Assembly: GCA_021848545.1 (NCBI GenBank)
Contig: JAJZUL010000003.1
Location: forward strand, 1-64,000
Direction of reading: 5' to 3'
DNA from: Pseudomonadota bacterium
Lineage (GTDB): Bacteria; Pseudomonadota; Alphaproteobacteria; Rhodospirillales; Magnetospirillaceae
Length of the DNA stretch: 64,000 nt
Part shown: piece by piece, positions 3,483 to 56,820 of the stretch
Layout of the letters: every line of letters begins with the position of its first letter
Position numbering within the stretch: the stretch's first letter is position 1
The notes under the pieces: generated by a model
Told to the model about the DNA's origin: nothing
Seen by the model: the letters and a program-made list of their open reading frames with translations, nothing else
Database searches by the model: none
Translations under genes and position numbers: made by a program

Positions 3483-3893
3483 GTGCGTAGCGGCTGGGAC
3501 TATCTGCTGGCGGATGTGGAACGCCGGATGCGGACGCTGGGAAATCTTCTGGCGGCGCTGTGCGTCGCCTGGATGGCGATCGTCGGCATCCTGATGCTGG
3601 ACCAGTTGACCCCCCGGATTCTGCAAAATCACCGCGACCCGGCCATCATGAAGCAGGTCAAGGATTGCCGCGGGCCGTCCTATGCCCGCAAATTCCGCTG
3701 CGCCCAGACCATCTTGCTGACCGGGGAACGGGTCGGCGCCTTCGAGGTGTTGCTGCGGGTGATCGCCGTCATCGCCCTGCCCACCATCGCCTGGCTGGTC
3801 TGGCGGTTCGTGATGCGCCGCGTCCGCCATACCCTGTGGGAGACGATGGTGGTGCCCCGGCTCCGCGCCCACGACCTCATCTCCCGCCTGTAA
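3483..3893 (+). CDS. Hypothetical two-helix membrane protein
   Basis: No named family recognised. The 136-residue product has a membrane helix at about 20-42. A loop of about 50 residues with two cysteines (KDCRGPSYARKFRCAQ) follows, then a second helix at about 90-112 and a basic C-terminal tail. If the N-terminus is cytoplasmic, the two cysteines lie in the periplasm and could form a disulfide. The start is a GTG at 3483 with AGAGG upstream; nearby ATG codons are out of frame. It is convergent with ubiD, from which a perfect hairpin separates it. Confidence 0.65.
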   Translation: MRSGWDYLLADVERRMRTLGNLLAALCVAWMAIVGILMLDQLTPRILQNHRDPAIMKQVKDCRGPSYARKFRCAQTILLTGERVGAFEVLLRVIAVIALPTIAWLVWRFVMRRVRHTLWETMVVPRLRAHDLISRL

Positions 3894-3899
3894 CGCCGC

Positions 3900-3934
3900 T
3901 ATACCGTGATGCGGTAAATCCGCATCACGGTATA
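3900..3934. terminator. Perfect 15-bp inverted repeat between convergent genes
   Basis: TATACCGTGATGCGG is followed by a TAAAT loop and its exact reverse complement. It lies 6 nt after the stop of the small membrane protein gene and 34 nt from the stop of ubiD. It has no U-run on either side, so intrinsic termination is uncertain. A bidirectional terminator or mRNA 3'-end stabiliser is the simplest reading, and a regulator operator is less likely between two 3' ends. Confidence 0.6.
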
Positions 3935-3968
3935 AGTTGTAAATCCGCCCTCGCCGAAGCGCGGCGCC

Positions 3969-5495
3969 CTATTTCCAGATGGGCCGGCCGCCGCCGGGCA
4001 GGCCGTATTCCGCCCAGCGCGCGGTCACTTTTTCCACCATGTCGTCGCTCATGCGGATTTTCGTTCCCCATTCACGATGGGTTTCGGGCGGCATCTTGTT
4101 GGTGGCGTCCATGCCCAGCTTGCCGCCCAGCCCGCTTTCGGGACTGGCGAAATCGAGATAATCGATGGGGGTGCCCTCGATCACGGTGATGTCGCGGGCC
4201 GGGTCCATGCGGGTGGCGACCGCCCACATCACGTCCTTCCAGTTCCGGGCGTCGATGTCGTCGTCCACCACGATCACCAGCTTGGTGTACATGAATTGCT
4301 TGAGGAACGACCACACGCCGAACATCACCCGCTTGGCGTGGCCGGGATAGGCCTTTTTCATCGACACCACGGCGATGCGATAGCTGCACCCTTCCGGCGG
4401 CAGCCAGAAATCGACGATTTCGGGGAATTGCTGAACCAGCAGGGGAATGAACACCTCGTTCAGAGCCTCGCCCAGAACGCTGGGCTCGTCCGGCGGCCGG
4501 CCGGTAAAGGTGGACAGGTAGATCGGCTTCTTGCGCATGGTCATGCAGGACACCCGGAAAACCGGGAAATCCTCGACGTTGTTGTAATAGCCGGTATGGT
4601 CGCCGTAGGGACCCTCGGGGCCGAATTCGTCAAGCATGACGTGGCCTTCCAGGATGATCTCGGCCTCGGCCGGCACCTTCAGCGGCACCGTGCGGCAATC
4701 GACCAGTTCGACCTTGCGGCCGCGCAGCAGGCCGGCGAACTGATATTCCGACAGGGTTTCCGGGACCGGGGTCACCGCCGCCAGGATGGTGCCGGGATCG
4801 GCGCCGATGGCCACCGCCGCCGGCAGGGGTTCCCTTTTTTCCGCCGCCCAGCGGCGGTAATGCTGGGCGCCGCCGCGATGCTTGAGCCAGCGCATCAGCG
4901 TCGTGTTGCGCCCCGTCACCTGCATGCGATAGATGCCGAGATTGAAATCGTCGCGCCGGTCGGCGTCACTCGTGCCTCGCGGCTTCGGCCCCTGGGTCAC
5001 CACCAGGGGCCAGGTGATCAGCGGCGCCGGTTCGCCCGGCCAGCAGCTTTGCACCGGCAGCAACGACAGATCGACGGCGTCGCCCTCCAGCACCACCTGC
5101 TGACACGGCGCCGAACCGACCGTCTTCGGCCGCATGGAAAACACCGTCTTCAGCAACGGCAGCATCTCGAGGGCTTCGCGCCACCCTCCCGGCGGCTCCG
5201 GCTGCTTGAGAAAAGCCAAAGTCTCGCCCACCTCGCGCAACTGGGCGGGTTCGCGATCCATCCCCCAGGCCACCCGCTCGACCGTGCCGAACAGATTGAC
5301 CAGAACCGGCATGTCATACGGGCGGCCGTCGGCGCGCACCACGTTTTCGAACAGGACCGCCGGCCCGCCCTCGGCCAACAGGCGGGTCTGAATCTCGGTC
5401 ATCTCCAGATCGGGGGAAACCGGCGCCGCGACCCGCGCCAGCTTTCCAGCCTGCTCCAGACGTTTTATGAAATCGCGAAGAGACTCGTAAGGCAT
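3969..5495 (-). CDS. ubiD: UbiD family decarboxylase (3-polyprenyl-4-hydroxybenzoate carboxy-lyase)
   Basis: Predicted prenylated-FMN-dependent decarboxylase that removes the carboxyl group of 3-polyprenyl-4-hydroxybenzoate in ubiquinone biosynthesis; cytoplasmic or membrane-associated. The 508 residues are close to the usual UbiD length. Visible signatures are the N-terminal [15 protein letters not shown] segment, the cofactor/metal region NLGIYRMQV...[15 protein letters not shown], and the acidic active-site stretch [15 protein letters not shown]. The start is the ATG at 5495 with AGGAGG 5 nt upstream, preferred over an ATG five codons earlier. No ubiX neighbour is seen here. Related UbiD enzymes act on other aromatic acids, but the match to the quinone-pathway type looks strong. 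Confidence 0.93.
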
Positions 5496-5604
5496 TGAAC
5501 CTCCTACCATCAGCCCTGTGCGTTTCCATTTTCACTTTGAGGGCTTCCGGCTGTACGGTTACCCTGAACAGGGTGACACCGCTTAAGGAAACAAGGAACC
5601 GGCC

Positions 5605-7374
5605 ATGGCTGCCACACGGGAAGAACGGTACCGCACGCTGATCGAACTGGGAATCGCGCTATCGGCCGAACGCAACCACAACCGGCTGATGGAGATGATC
5701 CTCAAGGGGGCCAAATCCATGGCCAACGCCGACGGCGGCACGCTGTACCTGCTAACCGAGGACCGGGCCGGGCTCAAGTTCGAAATCATGCTCAACGACA
5801 CGCTGGGCATCGCCATGGGCGGCACCACCGACAAGCCGATCCCCTTTCCGCCGCTGGCCCTGTACGCCGAGGACGGCACGCCCAACCATAAGAACGTCGC
5901 CAGCCATTGCGCCCTGACCGGGACCACCGTCGACATCGCCGACGCCTATGACGCCGACAAGTTCGATTTCAGCGGCACCAAAGCCTTCGACGCCAAGACC
6001 AATTACCGGTCCGCCTCGTTCCTGACCGTGCCCTTGAAGAATCACGACGGCGAGGTGGTGGGCGTCCTGCAATTGATCAACGCCCGCGGCGATTCCAACC
6101 AGGTCGGCCCCTTCAACGACGAAGTCTCGGCGATGGTCGAATCGCTGGCCAGTCAGGCCGCGGTGGCGCTGGACAACGCCCACCTGATCGAAGCGCAGAA
6201 GGCTCTGTTCAAGGCCTTCATTCAATTGATCGCGGGCGCCATCGACGCCAAAAGCCCCTATACGGGGGGCCATTGCAACCGCGTTCCCGTGCTCACCCAG
6301 ATGCTGGCCAAGGCCGCCTGCGATGCCAAGGACGGCGTATTCGCCGATTTCTCGCTGACCGAAGACGAGTGGTACGAGCTGGAAATCGCCGCCGACCTGC
6401 ATGATTGCGGCAAGGTCACCACCCCCGAATTCGTCGTCGACAAGGCGACCAAGCTGGAAACCATCTACAACCGCATCCATGAAATCCGCACCCGCTTCGA
6501 GGTGCTGAAGCGCGACGCCACCATCGCCTATCTGGAGGCCTCCCTGGCCGGCGACGGCGACGCGGAGACGCTGAAGACCCGCTGGCAGGAGCGCATCGCC
6601 GAACTGGACGCGGATTTCGCCTTCGTCGCCGAATGCAATGTCGGCGGCGAGTTCATGGCGCCCGAACGGGTGGAGCGGCTGAAACGCATCGCCGCCAATA
6701 CCTGGACCCGCACCCTGGACGACCGGCTGGGCCTGTCCCACGAGGAATTGCGCTTCCGCGGCACCGATGACGCGCCGGTGCCGGTGGCGGAGAAATTGCT
6801 GGACGACAAGGATTGGCACCTCGTGCCCCATGACGGGCCGATCGACACCGCCAAATACGAAGCCGAAGGCATCACCCTGATGCCGCGGCCCCACAAATAC
6901 AATCGCGGCGAAATCTACAATCTGTCCATCGGCCGGGGCACGCTCACCGACGAGGACCGCTTCAAGATCAACGACCACATCATCCAGACGATCATGATGC
7001 TGAAGGCCCTGCCCTTCCCCAAGACCCTGTCGCGGGTCCCCGAATGGGCCGGCGGCCATCATGAGAAGATGGACGGCAGCGGCTACCCCAAGGGCCTGCG
7101 CCGCGAGGAGATGACCCTGCCGGCCCGGATGATGGCTATCGCCGACATCTTCGAGGCCCTGACCGCCTGCGACCGGCCTTACAAAAAGGCCAAGACCCTG
7201 TCCGAGGCCCTGAAGATCATGTCCTTCATGGTCAAGGATCAGCACATCGATCCCGATCTGTGGATATTGTTCCTCAGCTCGGGAATCTGGAAATCCTACG
7301 CCGAAACCTATTTGAAGCCCGAACAGATCGACGAGGTCGATATCAGCCGTTACCTGCCCAAGGCTGCGGAATAG
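5605..7374 (+). CDS. GAF-HD-GYP domain protein, putative c-di-GMP phosphodiesterase
   Basis: A 589-residue cytoplasmic protein with an N-terminal GAF domain (about 10-200) and an HD-GYP domain (about 210-570). The metal-binding pair is in AADLHDCGK (HD near 266), and the signature HHEKMDGSGYP is at about 486-496. HD-GYP enzymes hydrolyse cyclic di-GMP to GMP or pGpG at a di- or tri-iron centre. The HD and GYP motifs are about 220 residues apart, far more than the usual 60 or so. The intervening insert is charged and helical (KATKLETIYNRIHEIRTRF onward) and may be regulatory. All metal ligands in the visible motifs are kept. AAGGAA precedes the ATG. It is divergent from ubiD. Confidence 0.88.
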   Translation: MAATREERYRTLIELGIALSAERNHNRLMEMILKGAKSMANADGGTLYLLTEDRAGLKFEIMLNDTLGIAMGGTTDKPIPFPPLALYAEDGTPNHKNVASHCALTGTTVDIADAYDADKFDFSGTKAFDAKTNYRSASFLTVPLKNHDGEVVGVLQLINARGDSNQVGPFNDEVSAMVESLASQAAVALDNAHLIEAQKALFKAFIQLIAGAIDAKSPYTGGHCNRVPVLTQMLAKAACDAKDGVFADFSLTEDEWYELEIAADLHDCGKVTTPEFVVDKATKLETIYNRIHEIRTRFEVLKRDATIAYLEASLAGDGDAETLKTRWQERIAELDADFAFVAECNVGGEFMAPERVERLKRIAANTWTRTLDDRLGLSHEELRFRGTDDAPVPVAEKLLDDKDWHLVPHDGPIDTAKYEAEGITLMPRPHKYNRGEIYNLSIGRGTLTDEDRFKINDHIIQTIMMLKALPFPKTLSRVPEWAGGHHEKMDGSGYPKGLRREEMTLPARMMAIADIFEALTACDRPYKKAKTLSEALKIMSFMVKDQHIDPDLWILFLSSGIWKSYAETYLKPEQIDEVDISRYLPKAAE

Positions 7375-54385: not shown

Positions 54386-54505
54386 ACTCGCCGTAACGTC
54401 CCAAACGCACCCGACCGGAACCATACCGGTCAGGGTCCAGGAGGATGATATTGGATTGAGGCGGCAATGCGTCAATCCAATATCCAAAACTGTTTTGTTT
54501 ATTGA

Positions 54506-54647
54506 GAGCCTGACCCGAAAATCGCCAGGGCGGCCTGCAAATGGCGGTTTTCTGCGCATCCGCTGCTCACGTACATGACGTACGCTCCGCTGCGGGTCTC
54601 GAAAACCGCCATTTTCGGCTCACCCTGCCGATTTTCGGGTCGGGCTC
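54506..54647 (-). mobile_element. 142-bp palindromic MITE-like element, copy 2
   Basis: It has the same 142-bp length and ends (GAGCCTGACCCGAAAATC, GATTTTCGGGTCGGGCTC) as the element at 30801-30942 but is inverted. Inner arms AAATGGCGGTTTTC and GAAAACCGCCATTTT pair, and the centre is CACGTACATGACGTACGC. It overlaps the last nine codons and the stop of the bufC-like gene, so insertion appears to have replaced the original end of that gene. Confidence 0.8.
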
Positions 54648-55420
54648 TGAGGGGAGCCGCCCTCGGCCCCGGCGAGACGACCGGCGACGAGATACCCGGC
54701 CAGAAGAGAGGGACCGGCGTCGCCCGCCGCCTCCAGCAGATCGCCAAGGGTGGCGCCGCCGCTCAAGCCGGCGCCGAATCGCCAGGCGGCATCGTCCAGA
54801 CGTTCCACCACCGGCAGACCGTCCACGCGATCGACCAGCACCCGTACCGGCCCCTGATCGGGATCGATTGCGGCCAGCCCCTCGTCATCCTCGTCCAGAA
54901 CCCGCCGCCAGATAAGATCGGCGGAATGGGCGACCTCGACCATCCTGACCGAGGGAATCAGGGTCAGCCGCAGATGTTCCGCGTCCGCCTCGGCGAGGGC
55001 GGCCAAGTCGTCGGCGGACAGGGGTGTGGCATCCTCGGCGTGAAGCGCCTGGGCGATGGCCCATTCGAGACGGGCGACATGGGCGAGATAGGGCACGGAC
55101 GCCGCCGGTCCGAACTCGGCCAGAAAGCCGGGAAAGCCGCCGCCGTAATCGTCGAGATTGCCGGTCCGGGGCGGGTCCGAGGCGATATAGAGATGGGCGG
55201 CGGCGTCGAAGAACGCCTCGCCCACCAGCCGGCGCACCACCGGGAAGCTTTGCGCCAGGGCCACCGCCACGCCGATCAGAAAACCGCTGCGATAGACCGA
55301 CAGACCTTCGGCCGCCATGTCGCCCTCGGTCAAATCGAGAAGGCCGGTGTCGCCCTCGACCAGGGCCCGGCTCATGGCGCGCTGCACGTCGCGCAAAGAA
55401 GAAGGCGCGTCAGGCGACAT
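54620..55420 (-). CDS. bufC: DUF2063 protein, partner of a DUF692 RiPP enzyme (BufC/HvfC-like)
   Basis: A 266-residue protein of the DUF2063 family. The N-terminal helical domain has the conserved GLSVYRSGFLIGVAVALAQ and FPVVRRLVGEAFF, followed by YIASDPPRTGNLDDYG and FLAEFGP. Such proteins bind the peptide precursor and present it to the DUF692 enzyme, whose gene overlaps this one by 11 nt upstream. The last residues (PQSPTRKSAG) are encoded by an inserted palindromic element and are unlikely to be native. The cysteine-rich precursor is the first gene of the operon. No DoxX-type membrane gene (bufD) follows. Confidence 0.85.
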   Translation of the reverse strand: MSPDAPSSLRDVQRAMSRALVEGDTGLLDLTEGDMAAEGLSVYRSGFLIGVAVALAQSFPVVRRLVGEAFFDAAAHLYIASDPPRTGNLDDYGGGFPGFLAEFGPAASVPYLAHVARLEWAIAQALHAEDATPLSADDLAALAEADAEHLRLTLIPSVRMVEVAHSADLIWRRVLDEDDEGLAAIDPDQGPVRVLVDRVDGLPVVERLDDAAWRFGAGLSGGATLGDLLEAAGDAGPSLLAGYLVAGRLAGAEGGSPQSPTRKSAG

Positions 55421-56297
55421 CGGCCGTCCCCTTCGCGGTTTCGTCCATCAGCGACTGGGCGATGGCGGCTTCGGCCATCAGCACCTCGATGGGGGGCACG
55501 TCCGTGTCCCATTCGATCAGGGTCGGCACCGGCCCGAACCGGGACAGGGCCTCGGCGTAAAGGCGCCACACCGCCGGGCAGACGATCGAACCGTGATCGT
55601 CGATTCTGAGCGCGTTCCCGTCTTCCAGAATCCGGGTGCTGTGGCCGGCCAGATGAATCTCCTCGATCATCGCCGGCGGCAGCGCCGCCAGATAAGCCGA
55701 CGCGTCCCAGCCGTGATTGCAGGCGCTGACATAGATGTTGTTGACGTCGCACAGAATGCCGCAGCCGGTGCGCCGGGCCACTTCCACCAGAAAGTCCGGT
55801 TCGGGAATCGTCGTGTGGCGATAGCGGATGTAACTGGAGGGATTTTCCATCAGAATGCGCCGGCCCAATCCCTCCTGCACCCGGTCGACGTTGCGGCACA
55901 CCACCGCCAGCGTCTCTTCCGTCAAGGGCAGCGGCAGCAATTCCGCCAGATTGATTCCGTCGATCGCCGACCAGGACAGATGGTCCGAGACCAGCCCCGG
56001 CTCCACCCGCTCGACCACCTGGCGGACCCGGCGCAGATGGTCTTCATCGATGCCGTCGGCGCCGCCGAGCGACAGGCCGACCCCGTGGAGCGAAACGGGA
56101 TAGTCGCGGCGGATGGCGTCGAGATAGGCGGGAATGGCGCCGCCGCCCATGTAATTCTCGGTATGGACCTCGAACCAGGGGATCATCGGCCGCTCATTGA
56201 TGACCGGCCGATGATGGCGGAAACGCAGGCCGACCCCCGCCGCCACCGGAATGGCGGCGGGGAAAACCGGCCGATCGCTGTCGGAGGCGATGGTCAC
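55410..56297 (-). CDS. bufB: DUF692 multinuclear non-heme iron enzyme (BufB-like)
   Basis: A 295-residue TIM-barrel enzyme of the DUF692/MNIO family, to which MbnB and BufB belong; these oxidise cysteines in precursor peptides using two or three irons. Likely metal ligands lie in WFEVHTENYM, SLHGVGLSLGG, VSDHLSWS, LMENPSSYI, CDVNNIYVSACNHGWD, EIHLAGHS and LIEWDTDVPP. The start is a GTG at 56297. It lies between the precursor gene (17 nt upstream) and the DUF2063 gene (11-nt overlap). The expected product is a thiooxazole-type modification of precursor cysteines for copper binding; that is by family. Confidence 0.9.
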   Translation of the reverse strand: MTIASDSDRPVFPAAIPVAAGVGLRFRHHRPVINERPMIPWFEVHTENYMGGGAIPAYLDAIRRDYPVSLHGVGLSLGGADGIDEDHLRRVRQVVERVEPGLVSDHLSWSAIDGINLAELLPLPLTEETLAVVCRNVDRVQEGLGRRILMENPSSYIRYRHTTIPEPDFLVEVARRTGCGILCDVNNIYVSACNHGWDASAYLAALPPAMIEEIHLAGHSTRILEDGNALRIDDHGSIVCPAVWRLYAEALSRFGPVPTLIEWDTDVPPIEVLMAEAAIAQSLMDETAKGTADVA

Positions 56298-56313: not shown

Positions 56314-56619
56314 TCAACCGGCCTTCAGCTTACCGCCGGCGATCTTCATGCAATCGCCCGCCGGCAACACCACGAACGCATCGACATCCCGCGCCTTGGC
56401 CTGGTGGGCGCGCACGGTCGCCGTCCGGCAATCGTTCTTGCCGGCGGCATTGACGCCGTAGCATTTCTGCATCCCCGAAGGCGACATGCCCGAAGACGCC
56501 ATTTGGCCACCACCCATGCCCTGACCCATGCCTTGGGCGTTGGCCGGCTCGGCCTGCACGGCCAAAGCCATGCCGACAGCCATGGAAAGGGCGGACGCGA
56601 CGATAATACGACGGCTCAT
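56314..56619 (-). CDS. bufA: Bufferin-type RiPP precursor with three cysteines (BufA-like, DUF2282)
   Basis: A 101-residue exported protein: signal peptide with core SALSMAVGMALAV and site PANAQ, a Gly/Met-rich linker, then the DUF2282 core. The core reads QKCYGVNAAGKNDC (Cys53, Cys64) and ends LPAGDCMKIAGGKL (Cys90). In the usual bufferin a fourth cysteine lies in an SCAG motif between them; here that place reads VRAHQAKARD with no cysteine. Met-rich stretches (GMGQGMGGGQM) could add copper ligands. GGGGAG precedes the ATG. It heads an operon with the DUF692 and DUF2063 genes, and is divergent from accA. Confidence 0.85.
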   Translation of the reverse strand: MSRRIIVASALSMAVGMALAVQAEPANAQGMGQGMGGGQMASSGMSPSGMQKCYGVNAAGKNDCRTATVRAHQAKARDVDAFVVLPAGDCMKIAGGKLKAG

Positions 56620-56820
56620 GGAGGGACTCCCCTGTTGGATGATCCTGTTTGAAACGAAAACGGCAGAACCGACGGAGCCGCCGTTACAAAGGATTTCGTA
56701 CCGACGCTACCCAAGGTTACACGCCTTTCGACATTTTTTTGCCGAAGCGGCGCCCGCGAACGCCCCTTTCCCATCGCTTCCGCTTGCCCGCGGACGCGGC
56801 TGCCGGTATGACATCCTCCC

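What the first reader, a model, noticed from the sequence alone, without database searches (positions are those of the whole stretch)
56314..56619. Bufferin-like precursor lacking one of four core cysteines
Seen: DUF2282-type core with Cys53, Cys64 and Cys90; the place of the usual SCAG cysteine has VRAHQAKARD. Known: bufferins are copper-binding RiPPs in which DUF692 enzymes oxidise core cysteines while the others can form a disulfide. Inference: this peptide could carry only one modified cysteine, with the added His and Met-rich linker giving a different copper site, or it may be a degenerating precursor.
Basis: partly seen in the sequence, partly recalled or inferred. Interest (0 to 1): 0.6.

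Follow-up and report, generated by a model that had tools for sequence, protein, structure and literature searches.

The report
Bufferin precursor missing its third cysteine
This bacterium has two copies of a small copper-binding peptide gene, and the copy that sits next to the genome's only maturation enzymes has lost one of the four cysteines present in every other intact copy examined, so it probably carries at most one chemical modification or is a copy losing its function.

Summary
Window 56314-56619 (-) encodes a secreted DUF2282 (Buf1-type bufferin) precursor, followed by the MNIO gene bufB and the DUF2063 gene bufC. It keeps Cys53, Cys64 and Cys90; the SCAG cysteine is gone (in-frame; TGC to CGC is the simplest reading). 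About 260 homologues examined (184 sampled in order, class and phylum, plus the 80 nearest database loci) keep all four cysteines where complete, so no three-cysteine clade was found. The genome is unusual: it has one bufB and one bufC, both here, but two precursors. The second, on contig C60, is canonical (four Cys) and sits with doxX and sigma/nrsF genes without any bufBC. The system is split, and this bufBC pair must serve the four-Cys paralogue in trans if that is modified at all. The three-Cys copy has the longest branch of its subfamily; its departures cluster in the linker and Cys3 loop. It keeps an intact frame, signal peptide, conserved core and a perfect sigma-F-type promoter. Best reading: a diverging paralogue able to carry at most one thiooxazole. 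Decay and neofunctionalisation cannot be told apart here. The 'added His and Met-rich linker' are not distinctive.

The parts
56314..56619 (-). bufA paralogue (A3), DUF2282 precursor with three core cysteines (Cys53, Cys64, Cys90); Sec-type signal peptide, probable cleavage after Ala28
   Evidence: PF10048 5.6e-14; alignments; signal peptide read by eye
56695..56720 (-). sigma-F-type promoter GTAACC-N16-CGAA, 101 nt upstream of the bufA start
   Evidence: consensus from PMC3511200; the motif precedes 82 of 185 bufA homologues, reversed control 2
55410..56297 (-). bufB, MNIO (DUF692) bufferin maturase, the only MNIO gene found in the genome
   Evidence: PF05114 1.8e-102; NCBIfam MNIO_BufB 372.8 bits over cut-off 310; single copy; keeps 51 of 52 near-invariant columns
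54620..55420 (-). bufC, DUF2063 partner protein, the only DUF2063 gene found in the genome
   Evidence: PF09836 2.7e-22; single copy
54504..54650 (.). palindromic dispersed repeat of about 147 bp overlapping the last codons and stop of bufC; doxX, which follows bufC in most relatives, is absent here
   Evidence: 40 near-identical copies scored in the genome; terminal inverted repeats; hairpin z-score -10.4

Best explanation
The gene encodes a genuine Buf1-type (DUF2282) bufferin precursor paralogue inside a bufferin system that is split over two loci. The window locus has an ECF sigma-F-type promoter, this three-Cys precursor and the genome's only bufB and bufC. The other locus (contig C60) has a canonical four-Cys precursor, doxX and the sigma/nrsF pair. 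Inferred mechanism: under copper stress the sigma factor transcribes the window operon; BufBC oxidises the two central cysteines of the four-Cys paralogue in trans, giving the main copper-binding bufferin, and can oxidise at most one cysteine (Cys64) of the window peptide, while Cys53 and Cys90 pair as a disulphide. With the four-Cys copy covering the function, the window copy has diverged under relaxed but not absent selection. Shown: anatomy, gene counts, missing Cys, promoter, divergence pattern. Inferred: trans-modification, a single thiooxazole, disulphide, copper response.
For: One MNIO and one DUF2063 but two DUF2282 genes in a 99.75% complete genome. The C60 copy sits with doxX, sigma and nrsF without bufBC, while relatives usually hold sigma/nrsF and bufABC-doxX together. 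The two signal peptides are alike (dN/dS 0.47), and the signal peptide is reported, as a preliminary result, to be part of the BufBC recognition sequence (PMC12452194). BufB keeps 51 of 52 near-invariant columns. Perfect GTAACC-N16-CGAA promoter. Core dN/dS of the window copy 0.36-0.44 against its paralogue and L219, against 0.10 for the four-Cys copy and its sister L219. Departures from 52 conserved columns: 21 in the window copy, 5 in the four-Cys copy, at most 11 in others. In the related EGKCG family one Cys of a pair is still modified when the other is mutated, 4 H per Cys (PMC12538549).
Against: No close relative with the same variant exists in the data, so conservation of the three-Cys form cannot be shown. 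The linker motif (VKxNM.R) present in 43 of 52 subfamily members is also lost (AlphaFold gives a helix at 38-49 in the four-Cys copy and none in the window copy), which may impair recognition by BufBC. An intact frame with at least 3 of 4 Cys kept arises in 2-25% of neutral simulations, so decay is not excluded. That the disulphide and Cys64 modification happen at all is untested.
Confidence: 0.5

Rival explanations
1. Decaying copy. The four-Cys paralogue took over, and this gene is losing function; the frame survives by youth or because its translation is coupled to that of bufB, which starts 16 nt after its stop.
For: Longest branch of the subfamily, 1.26 against a median of 0.1; 21 of 52 conserved columns lost; loop dN/dS above 1 on 10 codons; an intact frame alone is expected in 10-37% of neutral simulations; a relative (L281) holds an orphan bufA broken by a stop.
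Against: Changes are not uniform: 11 of 40 core positions differ from the paralogue against 28 of 29 in linker plus loop, p = 3e-9, though the segments were chosen after seeing the alignment; core dN/dS below 1; all length changes are in frame; Cys1, Cys2 and Cys4 are kept.
Confidence: 0.33
2. Neofunctionalised three-Cys bufferin with a different metal site, such as one thiooxazole plus His/Met ligands.
For: Concentrated change in exactly the Cys3 loop with a retained scaffold; intact promoter and secretion signal.
Against: Met-rich linker and a His near Cys3 are already the norm in the subfamily; single occurrence; no orthologue conserves VRAHQAK.
Confidence: 0.14
3. Sequencing or assembly artefact that hides the cysteine.
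For: Draft genome of 85 contigs. In the +1 frame a TGC does occur in the loop (sequence).
Against: Several substitutions and two in-frame codon deletions in the loop, plus a wholly different linker; the in-frame reading CGC GCC CAC CAG GCC matches TGC GCC GGC CAG GCC at 12 of 15 bases; frame closed correctly on both sides.
Confidence: 0.03

Closest known systems
Buf1 bufferins (DUF2282, PF10048), founding member of Caulobacter vibrioides; operons CC3254-3257 and CC2907-2905
   Same: Signal peptide, Cys1/Cys2/Cys4 context, adjacent bufB and bufC, sigma-F-type promoter
   Different: Third core cysteine missing; doxX and sigma/nrsF at another locus beside a second, canonical precursor
Genomes with several bufferin precursors and one MNIO/DUF2063 pair (described in PMC12452194)
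   Same: One BufBC pair, two precursors
   Different: Here the precursor next to bufBC is the aberrant one and the canonical one is the orphan
Burkholderiaceae/alphaproteobacterial subfamily with KCYGINAVAKNDCAEGAHSCAGQATQARD (for example Paraburkholderia sp. LEh10, L202)
   Same: Nearest homologues of both precursors and of bufB (up to 73% identity)
   Different: All complete members have four Cys, and most have the VKDNMARM linker
EGKCG-type MNIO RiPPs (oxazolin, fontiphorin, bulbicupramide)
   Same: MNIO plus DUF2063 pair forming thiooxazoles on Cys
   Different: Repeat-type core, no DUF2282 domain

Membership tests
Buf1 bufferin precursor (DUF2282) | DUF2282 profile match over the curated cut-off | tested here: met
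   52.3 bits, cut-off 22.4
Buf1 bufferin precursor (DUF2282) | Four conserved core cysteines | tested here: not met
   Three of four; Cys3 replaced
Buf1 bufferin precursor (DUF2282) | Sec signal peptide | tested here: inconclusive
   Read by eye (basic start, hydrophobic stretch, ANA before Gln29) and aligned with homologues; no signal-peptide predictor available
Buf1 bufferin precursor (DUF2282) | Gene order bufA-bufB-bufC | tested here: met
Buf1 bufferin precursor (DUF2282) | Thiooxazole on central cysteines, copper binding | not testable with these tools
   Needs mass spectrometry and metal binding
BufB (MNIO bufferin maturase) | NCBIfam equivalog cut-off and residues conserved across BufB homologues | tested here: met
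   372.8 bits over 310; 51 of 52 near-invariant columns kept, D119 to E
BufC (DUF2063 partner) | DUF2063 profile match | tested here: met
   79.3 bits, cut-off 27.2
BufA2 / Buf2 bufferin | NCBIfam BufA2 cut-off | tested here: not met
   15 bits against cut-off 60
   None among 184 sampled, 80 nearest and 3 plasmid homologues

The most novel reading that the evidence does not exclude
A natural single-thiooxazole bufferin: one BufBC pair makes a two-heterocycle bufferin from the distant canonical precursor and a one-heterocycle bufferin with different metal affinity or preference from the adjacent three-Cys precursor, as a two-tier copper buffer.
Probability: 0.15. Interest if true: 0.6.

Novelty: new variant of a known kind. 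Interest (0 to 1): 0.4.

Why it matters
Whether one MNIO/DUF2063 pair modifies several precursors encoded elsewhere, or leaves some unmodified for another purpose, is stated as open in PMC12452194. This genome is a clean natural test: one enzyme pair, one canonical precursor in trans and one precursor in cis that lacks a target cysteine. It also offers a natural variant to ask whether the two modifications depend on each other.

Tried and rejected
Compensated double frameshift as the cause of the missing Cys: a TGC does occur in the +1 frame, but the in-frame alignment is simpler. Added His/Met-rich linker as a distinctive metal site: it is the subfamily norm. Single-protein scan of genome contigs: no relative found; the alignment query gave 80 loci. 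Genome-wide count of the promoter motif: not enriched over its reversed control (17 against 36); only its position upstream of bufA genes is informative. AlphaFold models are of low to moderate confidence (mean pLDDT 59.8 and 67.5), used only for the presence or absence of the linker helix; no fold search was run. Literature: the founding bufferin paper was not found in the library; its results are taken from later papers.

Full report
Observation. The ORF at 56314-56619 on the minus strand is present as described. It matches Pfam DUF2282 well above its cut-off. The core holds three cysteines, Cys53, Cys64 and Cys90. bufB (55410-56297) starts 16 nt after its stop, and bufC (54620-55420) overlaps the end of bufB. 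A purine-rich AGGGGAG lies 7 nt before the ATG (sequence).

Genome context. The whole genome (3.17 Mb, 85 contigs, 99.75% complete) has two DUF2282 genes, one MNIO gene and one DUF2063 gene. The second precursor lies on contig C60 (L033:6790-7107, minus) and is canonical: KCFGINAIGKNDCAMGNHSCAGQATIARDPGSFVLLPAGDCSKIAGGKL. Next to it are doxX (L033:6237-6722) and, pointing towards them, sigma (4867-5586) and nrsF (5579-6229) genes, with no bufBC. In relatives of the family and in most of the nearest database loci these genes stand together. The bufferin system here is therefore split, and the aberrant precursor is the one that stayed with the enzymes. PMC12452194 notes that genomes with several precursors and one enzyme pair exist and that it is not known whether all the precursors are modified.

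Is there a three-cysteine clade? Homologues were collected from relatives, class and phylum. Of 184 different core sequences, the window peptide was the only complete one lacking a core cysteine; one other was cut by a contig end. The 80 nearest loci of genome contigs all have four, except L281, whose frame is broken by a stop after CAGTS. Three plasmid homologues have four. The samples overlap in part and are not exhaustive: the metagenome collection could not be scanned.

Nature of the change. The nearest subfamily has the consensus VVKDNMARM...HLEKCYGINAVAKNDCAEGAHSCAGQATQARDPKSFVLLPAGDC. The window peptide departs at 21 of its 52 conserved columns, the four-Cys paralogue at 5, all others at 0-11. 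Departures cluster in the linker and in the Cys3 loop: 28 of 29 positions differ from the paralogue there, against 11 of 40 in the rest of the core (segments were chosen after seeing the alignment). The loop reads CGC GCC CAC CAG GCC where relatives read TGC GCC GGC CAG GCC or close to it, so Cys to Arg by one transition is the simplest path, with Gly to His and two codons lost. Pairwise dN/dS in the conserved core is 0.44 against the paralogue and 0.36 against L219; the paralogue against L219 gives 0.10. The tree gives the window copy a branch of 1.26 (median 0.1) and unsure placement; the four-Cys copy is sister to L219 with 99/92 support. Neutral simulation keeps an intact frame with at least three Cys in 2-25% of cases, so retention of the frame alone proves little.

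Machinery. BufB passes the NCBIfam BufB cut-off and keeps 51 of 52 near-invariant columns. A perfect sigma-F consensus GTAACC-N16-CGAA (PMC3511200) lies 101 nt before the bufA start. The motif, with a looser spacer, occurs upstream of 82 of 185 homologues against 2 for a reversed control. The four-Cys copy has GTAACC with an imperfect -10 (GGAA at N16). The window operon therefore looks able to respond to the sigma/nrsF pair of C60; this is inference.

Structure. AlphaFold2 with a 60-sequence alignment gives two short strands around Cys53 and before Cys90 in the window peptide, as in the paralogue, but no linker helix (paralogue: helix 38-49). Confidence is low to moderate.

Operon break. A palindromic element of about 147 bp, with at least 40 near-identical copies in the genome, overlaps the last codons and stop of bufC (54504-54650), where relatives continue into doxX. 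A copy also lies about 770 bp upstream of the four-Cys precursor (C60:7880-8028). Whether such copies took part in splitting the operon is a guess.

Interpretation. Shown: a divergent DUF2282 precursor without Cys3, beside the only BufBC pair of the genome, with a canonical paralogue elsewhere. Inferred: the paralogue is modified in trans; the window peptide carries at most one thiooxazole, on Cys64. A precedent is that in the EGKCG family one Cys of a pair is still modified when the other is mutated (PMC12538549). Decay and a new function cannot be told apart without sister genomes or mass spectrometry.

Verdict. A real, so far unique variant of a known kind, of moderate interest mainly as a natural test of how one BufBC pair treats two precursors.

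Noticed in passing
window 54504-54650: MITE-like palindromic repeat of about 147 bp with terminal inverted repeats AGAGCCCGACCCGAAAATCGCC; 40 copies scored (173 first-look candidates) in the genome, folding z-score -10.4. It supplies the last codons and stop of bufC.
   Followed up: partly
L281 (Rhodospirillales bacterium Dino_bin47), about 3887-4200: sigma-nrsF-bufA-doxX locus without bufBC nearby in which bufA is interrupted by a stop right after CAGTS.
   Followed up: partly
L033 (contig C60) about 4700-4900 and about 8200: A second dispersed repeat (reading frame RVNPLPL.YV.FPQSPGGRVRSLGYPRLRSE) flanks the sigma/nrsF/doxX/four-Cys bufA block on both sides, as if the block had moved.
   Followed up: no
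L214 (Acidobacteria MAG contig QHWF01000713.1): A bufferin operon very close to betaproteobacterial ones sits in a contig binned as Acidobacteria; binning error or transfer.
   Followed up: no
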